35,642 bases of DNA from Promicromonospora citrea. GTDB taxonomy: Bacteria > Actinomycetota > Actinomycetes > Actinomycetales > Cellulomonadaceae. The position numbers and the translations under genes were made by a program. The notes under the pieces were generated by a model. The model worked only from the letters and a program-made list of their open reading frames with translations. It did no database searches and was not told the DNA's origin. Position 1 is the first letter of the stretch. The number at the start of each line of letters is the position of its first letter. Where the stretch lies: contig NZ_JABEMG010000037.1 in NCBI RefSeq assembly GCF_013004695.1, positions 1-35,642 of the forward strand, written 5' to 3'. Shown here piece by piece: positions 342 through 956 of this stretch.

Positions 342-429
342 ACAATGGCGGTGAAATGTCTATTCGCCGTCGATTTGCCCGAACCGTGCGCGGCACTCTG
401 CGCTGCTGCAGGAAAGTGTGCGCACACGC

Positions 430-476
430 AAAAGAACGAAGGCCTCCCGCGGTGGCACCGCAGGAGACCTTCGTTC
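430..476 (-). terminator. Rho-independent terminator of the small peptide transcript
   Basis: Arms 434-452 and 458-476 pair in three blocks (9+4+4 bp) around a 5-nt loop. The two interruptions are C/A on the plus strand and so become G-U pairs in minus-strand RNA, making the minus-strand stem continuous. On the minus strand the stem is followed by TTTT (complement of 430-433). Both points assign it to the minus-strand peptide gene that ends about 55 nt upstream. Confidence 0.85.
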
Positions 477-530
477 AGCTGGGGATGGAAATACGCCGCG
501 GCTGACGGCGACGTACGACGTCCTACCTGC

Positions 531-614
531 TCAGAGGCCCAGGAGGTCGCGAATCTGGGCCAGCGTGATGCCGAGCGAGTCGAGCAGGGTCGAGAGGATG
601 TCGACGACAGTCAT
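531..614 (-). CDS. 27-residue amphipathic leucine-rich peptide (unrecognised)
   Basis: The ATG at 614-612 is preceded by GGAAGGAA at good Shine-Dalgarno spacing; the frame runs 27 codons to TGA. The peptide begins MTVVDILSTLLDSLG and ends with IRDLLGL. Hydrophobic residues fall at 3, 4, 7, 10, 11, 14, 18, 21 and 25, the spacing of one face of an alpha helix. Asp5, Asp12 and Asp23 against Arg22 make it net acidic. Two imperfect repeats, LLDSLGI and IRDLLGL, are visible. It has no signal peptide and no cysteine. A promoter upstream and a strong terminator downstream frame it as a stand-alone transcript. I do not recognise it; a surface-active or signalling peptide is conceivable. The alternative is a non-coding RNA with a chance short frame. 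Confidence 0.6.
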   Translation of the reverse strand: MTVVDILSTLLDSLGITLAQIRDLLGL

Positions 615-685
615 GGTGCTATTCCTTCCAGAAAACGGGAATCACAGGATGATCACCTGCGAGCGGAACAGTGTTCGCGTTCTAC

Positions 686-714
686 ACGCTAAGCACGCGA
701 GACGGACCCTGCAA
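686..714 (-). promoter_or_regulatory. Candidate promoter of the 27-residue peptide gene
   Basis: On the minus strand TTGCAG (714-709) is followed after 17 nt by TAGCGT (691-686), a sigma-70-like pair. Transcription would start near 679, giving a leader of about 65 nt before the peptide ATG. Confidence 0.5.
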
Positions 715-749
715 CGGGAATTGGATATTCGCTCTTAATGAGCACCCAC

Positions 750-775
750 TTTCACCCTGTGATAGTGAGGTGAAA
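750..775. promoter_or_regulatory. Inverted repeat TTTCACC-N12-GGTGAAA, possible operator
   Basis: Perfect 7-bp arms at 750-756 and 769-775, about 36 bp upstream of the -35 element of the peptide gene. The site is AT-richer than its surroundings, as protein-binding sites often are. Which regulator would bind is unknown. Confidence 0.4.
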
Positions 776-876
776 ATCGAGCCACGCTCCGGCACAAACC
801 GGGCAGTGCGGACGCCGGCGACGGCCGGGTCCGCAGGCGTCGCTGCCGGCCGCGCCCGCCGCGCGACCCGCCCGGA

Positions 877-946
877 TCGTCTTCCACCCCGACGTTTCTC
901 GGCTTTGCGGGCCGTCAAAGCCGAGAAACGTCGGGTCGGAAGACGA
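877..946. repeat. Long near-perfect palindrome (31-bp arms, 8-nt loop)
   Basis: Left arm 877-907, right arm 916-946, loop 908-915. Twenty-nine of 31 positions pair: 9 bp outside, two mismatches (886/937 and 887/936), then 20 bp without a break (CCCGACGTTTCTCGGCTTTG and its complement). It lies between two divergent transcription units, so it does not terminate any gene seen here. A miniature transposable element remnant, a cruciform-type binding site or a structured RNA are possible. No flanking target duplication was seen and no second copy was noticed in the window. Confidence 0.8.
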
Positions 947-956
947 GTGGTCGGAG

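What the first reader, a model, noticed from the sequence alone, without database searches (positions are those of the whole stretch)
430..714. Stand-alone gene for a 27-residue amphipathic, acidic helix peptide
Promoter-like elements (TTGCAG, 17 nt, TAGCGT), a good ribosome site (GGAAGGAA), a 27-codon frame and a strong minus-strand terminator form a complete unit too short for usual gene calls. The peptide has Leu/Ile/Val on one helix face and two imperfect repeats (LLDSLGI, IRDLLGL), without signal sequence or cysteine. This resembles the general design of phenol-soluble-modulin or corynebacterial PorA/PorH-like peptides, but its charge is negative and this lineage lacks a mycolate layer. 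It could be a surface-active, antimicrobial or signalling peptide.
Basis: partly seen in the sequence, partly recalled or inferred. Interest (0 to 1): 0.75.

Follow-up and report, generated by a model that had tools for sequence, protein, structure and literature searches.

The report
Tiny conserved amphipathic-peptide gene in Promicromonospora
A real, so far unclassified gene makes a 27-amino-acid peptide with an oily and a watery side in soil bacteria of one genus, and its control region is conserved even more strongly than the peptide, which suggests a tightly controlled peptide acting on membranes or surfaces.

Summary
The unit is real. A 27-codon frame (window 531-614, minus) lies between a TTGCAG-17-TAGCGT promoter and a 20-pair terminator. 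Promicromonospora genomes hold 18 copies, each exactly 27 residues: 12 of 13 genomes, 6 with two paralogues. In group A, amino-acid and hydrophobic-class changes fall below all 5000 simulations, though pN/pS is only 0.61-0.77.

A model of them found two genomes of another genus where this leader precedes a different, 23-residue acidic amphipathic peptide. Leader hairpin P2 shows compensatory changes. All 18 copies keep a C-rich motif before the terminator, predicted mostly unpaired; its complement is not enriched.

Nothing significant in Pfam, NCBIfam, PHROGs or PDB. Neighbours differ between copies, so it is stand-alone. Best mechanism: a regulated, membrane- or interface-active peptide that works like a phenol-soluble modulin (0.4). 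Rivals: type I toxin-like peptide; RNAIII-like dual-function RNA. Expression, export and function are inferred, not shown.

The parts
531..614 (-). 27-codon ORF, MTVVDILSTLLDSLGITLAQIRDLLGL
   Evidence: 18 copies of exactly 27 aa; coding-pattern test
622..629 (-). ribosome-binding site GGAAGGAA, 7 nt before ATG
   Evidence: sequence; GGAAGGAA in 12 of 12 group A copies; group B varies
615..685 (-). conserved 5' leader region (transcription start inferred a few nt inside)
   Evidence: mean pairwise identity in group A 0.92-0.99 from -70 to -11
642..662 (-). leader hairpin P2 (TCGCAGG...CCTGTGA)
   Evidence: pairs 1-6 form in 18 of 18 copies, pair 7 in 17 of 18; pair 5 occurs as AT 12, GC 4, CG 1, TA 1; the same hairpin can be read in G208 and G210
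666..676 (-). GAAC-ACT-GTTC inverted repeat near the expected start site, possible 5'-terminal hairpin
   Evidence: spacing 3 nt in 16 of 18, 2 in L010, 5 in L020
686..691 (-). -10 element TAGCGT
   Evidence: TANNNT in 18 of 18
709..714 (-). -35 element TTGCAG
   Evidence: TTGCA in 18 of 18
723..729 (-). conserved upstream AATATCC
   Evidence: in both paralogue groups (L010 and L013 deviate) and in G208 and G210
750..765 (-). conserved upstream element CTATCACAGGGTGAAA, probable regulator site
   Evidence: identity 0.93 at -150..-131 in group A; related forms in group B by eye
478..487 (-). C-rich motif CATCCCCAGC between ORF and terminator
   Evidence: CCCCAG in 18 of 18; C-run more unpaired than the transcript mean in 18 of 18, barely so in L018 and L019; identity 0.83 in the 20-nt bin overlapping the motif and the start of the terminator, 0.43-0.60 in the bins beside it
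434..476 (-). intrinsic terminator, 20-pair stem; T run 430-433
   Evidence: stems of 13-20 pairs in 18 of 18 copies, but without a clear T run in some (for example L002, L011)

Best explanation
A single-gene mRNA of about 250 nt, driven by a conserved, probably multi-input promoter and protected by 5' and 3' hairpins, makes a short, acidic, amphipathic helical peptide, probably in large amounts. The peptide is most likely released unprocessed, or held at the envelope, and acts at membranes or interfaces (surfactant, wetting, anti-competitor), so that its physical pattern matters more than its exact sequence. Shown: gene anatomy, conservation of frame, hydrophobic pattern and leader. Inferred: transcription start, expression level, export, membrane action, and the benefit to the cell. 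It works like a phenol-soluble modulin (PSM); membership in that family is not claimed.
For: All 18 copies are 27 aa, with substitutions that preserve hydrophobic class (group A: 11 class changes against 34.8 simulated, 0 of 5000 as low; group B: 6 against 9.4, P 0.057). The helical moment peaks at 95-105 degrees in 14 of 18 copies (145 in the other 4), with shuffle P 0.0135 or lower in 9 of 18 and 0.05-0.22 in the other 9. In G208 and G210 the same leader carries a different 23-aa acidic amphipathic peptide (P about 0.02), so property rather than sequence is kept. No constant partner gene: the downstream TetR gene is convergent in 12 of 12 group A copies, and group B neighbours vary. Promoter and leader are the most conserved part. 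No signal sequence seen (by eye); no significant domain.
Against: No expression, export or activity data. No search for a PSM-type exporter was made; the only exporter-like neighbours seen, by eye, are a LysE-type gene beside two group B copies and an MFS gene near G208's copy. Net charge is -1 to -3, unfavourable for binding anionic membranes. This copy's amphipathicity is borderline, and half of the copies do not pass P 0.05. G15-x-T17 (G15 in 17 of 18) may break the peptide into two short helices. The gene is absent in G002, so it is dispensable.
Confidence: 0.4

Rival explanations
1. Type I toxin-like peptide: made inside the cell, inserts in the cell's own membrane, and is held down by leader structure and an antisense RNA not yet seen.
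For: Short hydrophobic peptide, structured leader, strong terminator, two copies in 6 genomes, absence in one species. Membrane type I toxins are generally under 60 aa, hydrophobic and helical (passages of PMC8309996).
Against: No antisense gene identified (no transcript data to test it); peptide acidic, with few basic residues; similarity to E. coli TisB is no better than shuffles (P 0.11-0.44 for 4 of 18 copies tested).
Confidence: 0.2
2. Dual-function RNA: the mRNA makes the peptide and also uses its exposed C-rich motif to block ribosome sites of other mRNAs, as RNAIII does.
For: CCCCAG kept in 18 of 18 copies, C-run predicted unpaired above the transcript mean in 18 of 18 (0.40-0.98); conserved above its flanks in group A. 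RNAIII encodes a PSM and uses C-rich loops against ribosome sites (passages of PMC2837412).
Against: The complement AGCTGGGGATG occurs 52 times in 13 genomes against 80 for the reversed control; the C-run of L018 and L019 is hardly more open than average; motif not evident in G210; no targets known.
Confidence: 0.15
3. Intracellular micropeptide that binds and tunes a membrane protein or regulator.
For: Invariant D5, L10, T17, L25, G26 suggest some specific contacts; stand-alone gene with a conserved promoter.
Against: Rapid sequence change; the 23-aa version in another genus shares little.
Confidence: 0.15
4. Peptide pheromone whose conserved C-terminus (LLGL and variants) is the signal, sensed by a regulator such as the neighbouring TetR.
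For: Conserved C-terminus; group A lies beside the same TetR gene in 12 of 12.
Against: TetR is present in 41 of 44 genomes searched, 29 of them without the peptide; group B has other neighbours.
Confidence: 0.06
5. Leader peptide/attenuator, or a chance frame in a non-coding RNA.
For: Leader RNA more conserved than the frame; pN/pS 0.61-0.77. In 2 of 5 group B contexts read (G000, G011) the next downstream gene is on the same strand.
Against: Downstream gene is convergent in 12 of 12 group A copies and in 3 of 5 group B contexts; constant length and coding pattern.
Confidence: 0.04

Closest known systems
Phenol-soluble modulins (Staphylococcus)
   Same: Short, amphipathic, helix-like, no signal peptide seen, small gene
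   Different: No sequence relation shown; other phylum; export not shown; acidic with almost no lysine
RNAIII of S. aureus
   Same: One structured RNA with a short amphipathic peptide frame and an exposed C-rich motif
   Different: About half the length (RNAIII length recalled); no target shown; C-rich complement not enriched
TisB and other membrane type I toxins
   Same: Size, structured leader, amphipathic helix
   Different: No antisense RNA found; acidic; similarity at shuffle level
Corynebacterial PorA/PorH
   Same: Small helical proteins without signal peptide (recalled)
   Different: Those sit in a mycolate layer; PorA of C. jeikeium has 40 aa (title in listing); no comparison was run

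Membership tests
Phenol-soluble modulin | short amphipathic alpha-helix | tested here: inconclusive
Phenol-soluble modulin | secreted through PSM transporters (Pmt/AbcA; passages of PMC12607899) | not tested
   export needs experiments; the genome was not searched for such transporters
Phenol-soluble modulin | sequence relation to described families | tested here: not met
   2 of 18 copies scanned: NCBIfam none at E <= 10; Pfam only Xre-like-HTH 0.23 and RBD_ZCCHC3 0.25, below cut-offs. No direct comparison with PSM sequences was made
Type I toxin-antitoxin | antisense RNA pairing with the mRNA | not testable with these tools
   no promoter-like site on either strand by the strict scan, which also misses the conserved promoter and so proves little; no transcript data
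Type I toxin-antitoxin | sequence relation to TisB | tested here: not met
   shuffle P 0.11-0.44 for 4 copies
RNAIII-like dual-function RNA | conserved unpaired C-rich motif | tested here: met
   18 of 18 Promicromonospora copies above transcript mean (L018, L019 barely); not evident in G210
RNAIII-like dual-function RNA | pairing with ribosome sites of target mRNAs | tested here: inconclusive
   full 11-nt complement not enriched (52 against 80 in the control); shorter or imperfect pairing not tested
PorA/PorH | location in a mycolate outer layer | not tested
   recalled that this lineage lacks such a layer
Rfam RNA families | match above gathering score | tested here: not met
   none in the window; best ctRNA_pGA1, 26.4 bits against a threshold of 45, on the terminator

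The most novel reading that the evidence does not exclude
An actinobacterial counterpart of RNAIII that arose independently: one conserved, stable RNA whose leader and C-rich 3' motif regulate other genes, while its reading frame is a fast-changing slot for short amphipathic peptides (27 aa in Promicromonospora, a different 23 aa in a second genus).
Probability: 0.13. Interest if true: 0.82.

Novelty: new variant of a known kind. Interest (0 to 1): 0.5.

Why it matters
Genes this short are easily missed by annotation. Here comparative evidence, not expression, singles one out with its promoter, leader, terminator and relatives. A regulatory leader that outlasts the peptide it carries is unusual, gives a practical handle (search by leader, not by peptide) for finding hidden peptide genes, and makes the function directly testable in soil bacteria that are not known to me as pathogens.

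Tried and rejected
Rejected or left: attenuator/uORF (downstream gene convergent in 12 of 12 group A copies; but same strand in 2 of 5 group B contexts read). LexA-type operator at GAAC-N-GTTC: spacing is 3 nt in 16 of 18, 2 in L010 and 5 in L020, whereas the SOS box (recalled) has a fixed 4. A PafBC-type damage promoter (recalled; the paper PMC6789036 was seen only in the listing) was dropped because the spacer does not match by eye. TisB kinship. The weak Pfam match to an Xre-like HTH (E 0.23, below cut-off) agrees with a G-x-T helix step seen by eye and was not pursued. Weak profile hits outside the genus (E 5.8e-4 to 0.5) lie in open frames of 139 aa or more and were taken as chance without reading each; one search also lists one in G002 (E 0.28, frame of 398 aa). 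Three of the 15 genomes matched (G028, G040, G041) were dropped for the same reason. PHROGs: 3 families at E 0.19-0.26 and one PDB chain at E 1.5, ignored. Phage collection and viral contigs: no match. A shared regulon was sought with the promoter pattern at up to 3 mismatches in 13 genomes: the 17 sites found are 17 of the 18 peptide units themselves (G005 missed), no other gene. Small frames beside TetR in 18 loci from other genera and in G002: none convincing, while the control L070 was found. Paper searches in this limited library with no report of this gene: (Promicromonospora + small protein + peptide: 1 paper, by title off topic) and, on the wider themes. Neighbour genes were named by eye from a crude GC3 gene finder; no family search was run on them.

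Full report
What is there. On the minus strand, window 714 to 430 holds a complete small transcription unit: TTGCAG, 17 nt, TAGCGT; a leader of about 70 nt; GGAAGGAA; a 27-codon frame; 54 nt; a 20-pair hairpin with TTTT. Window 430-690 (minus) folds better than 200 shuffles (z -4.1), largely through the terminator.

The frame is a gene. The peptide has a 48%-identical paralogue in the same genome. In 59 relatives, 15 genomes matched at E <= 10: 12 are of the same genus (12 of 13), 3 are weak matches inside long frames. In all, 18 copies form two groups: A (12 copies, beside one TetR gene) and B (6 copies, in G000, G006, G007, G009, G010, G011). All are exactly 27 aa; M1, D5, L10, T17, L25 and G26 are invariant. 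Substitutions placed at random on the group consensus give more amino-acid changes than seen (A: 58 against 78.7 on average, none of 5000 as low; B: 24 against 33.4, P 0.0002) and more hydrophobic-class changes (A: 11 against 34.8, none of 5000 as low; B: 6 against 9.4, P 0.057). The test treats copies as independent, so relatedness inflates its strength; absence of stops is no evidence (P 0.27 in A, 0.71 in B). pN/pS is 0.61 in A and 0.77 in B: the pattern is guarded more than the letters.

Reach. A profile of the 18 copies found only this genus strongly: 12 of 221 family genomes at E 3.9e-12 or lower; the other 36 of the 48 genomes matched at E <= 0.5 have 0.0037 or weaker. Among 396 order and 394 class genomes only G000 matched strongly; 4 and 6 others had E between 5.8e-4 and 0.01, in frames of 310-618 aa. 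G002 lacks the unit: in it the TetR gene and a dehydrogenase-like gene nearly meet, and a TetR tree groups G002 with G001 inside the genus (support 0.87), so loss is likelier than original absence.

The leader outlasts the peptide. In group A mean pairwise identity in 20-nt bins is 0.87-0.99 from -110 to -11, 0.75-0.85 over the frame and 0.20-0.65 upstream of -150. A covariance model of promoter and leader found, beyond 12 Promicromonospora genomes, G208 (E 7.5e-19) and G210 (E 1.5e-9) of one other genus among 221 family genomes; 4 further matches at 0.19-0.41 were not credible (two of the four were read). A longer model that includes these two gave E 2.0e-25 and 4.9e-18 for them and nothing else outside Promicromonospora in 221 family genomes; in 396 order genomes it found G000 and one match at 0.31. 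These scans over more than 40 genomes use stricter filters, so weak relatives may be missed. After the leader stand MYGTNLLDCIVWALREIVATIGL and MYGNSLIDYILWALREIVATIGL, 23 aa, acidic and amphipathic (P about 0.02). The G208 peptide aligned with the 18 copies gives shuffle P 0.003 to 0.30: suggestive at best. A search of that genus found the 23-aa peptide in 2 of 4 genomes, the same two.

RNA features. Leader hairpin P2 forms pairs 1-6 in 18 of 18 copies, with pair 5 as AT (12), GC (4), CG (1), TA (1). Near the start site GAAC-N-GTTC has spacings of 2, 3 or 5 nt, which fits an RNA hairpin better than a protein operator. Between frame and terminator lies a C-rich motif (CATCCCCAG in A, CCCCCAGCAG in B) whose C-run is predicted more open than the transcript mean in 18 of 18, though only 0.40 against 0.37 in L018 and 0.41 against 0.38 in L019. 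Its 11-nt complement AGCTGGGGATG occurs 52 times across 13 genomes against 80 for the reversed control, so no support for targets came from this. The promoter pattern at up to 3 mismatches occurs in the genus only at the peptide units (17 sites), so no regulon was seen.

Surroundings (names by eye, crude gene finder). Group A is convergent with TetR in 12 of 12 copies and, in the window, divergent from a MarR-type gene. Five of the 6 group B contexts were read: neighbours include LysE-type, DUF1269-like and NUDIX genes; the downstream gene is convergent in 3 and on the same strand in 2 (G000, G011). In G208 and G210 neighbours differ again. The unit is therefore treated as stand-alone.

Interpretation. 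A conserved control region on a small, fast-changing amphipathic peptide fits a peptide whose physical effect at membranes or interfaces is what is selected. PSMs are the nearest working model (passages of PMC12607899), RNAIII a bolder one (passages of PMC2837412), and type I toxins the chief rival (passages of PMC8309996). The G15-x-T17 step (G15 in 17 of 18) could break the peptide into two short helices; the 23-aa version lacks it. Structure prediction was not possible at this length. No expression data were available; the mechanism is inference at 0.4.

Noticed in passing
window 877-946: A very strong imperfect hairpin (about 30 pairs; window 870-950 folds at -57.6 kcal/mol, z -8.2) lies between the peptide promoter and the MarR-type gene. 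Its arm sequence occurs in none of the other loci fetched (3 of 143 loci, all this same window stretch). Possibly a small mobile repeat or a bidirectional terminator.
   Followed up: partly
window 399-433 (minus) and the same place in other copies: Just after the terminator most copies of both paralogue groups keep TGCG/CGCA inverted repeats that can form a second hairpin (by eye; folds), although the two groups sit at different genome places; could be a back-up terminator or protein sites.
   Followed up: partly
window 753-763 and 641-651: The upstream element ATCACAGGGTG is complementary to leader CATCCTGTGAT (one G-U). Seen by eye in group A only, not in group B or the second genus.
   Followed up: no
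L002 and L021 (group B copies): Peptides with two cysteines (C12 and C23, the same helix face by spacing), which could allow disulphide-linked dimers.
   Followed up: no
L069 (G002): Empty site: TetR and a dehydrogenase-like gene nearly meet where other species carry the peptide unit.
   Followed up: partly
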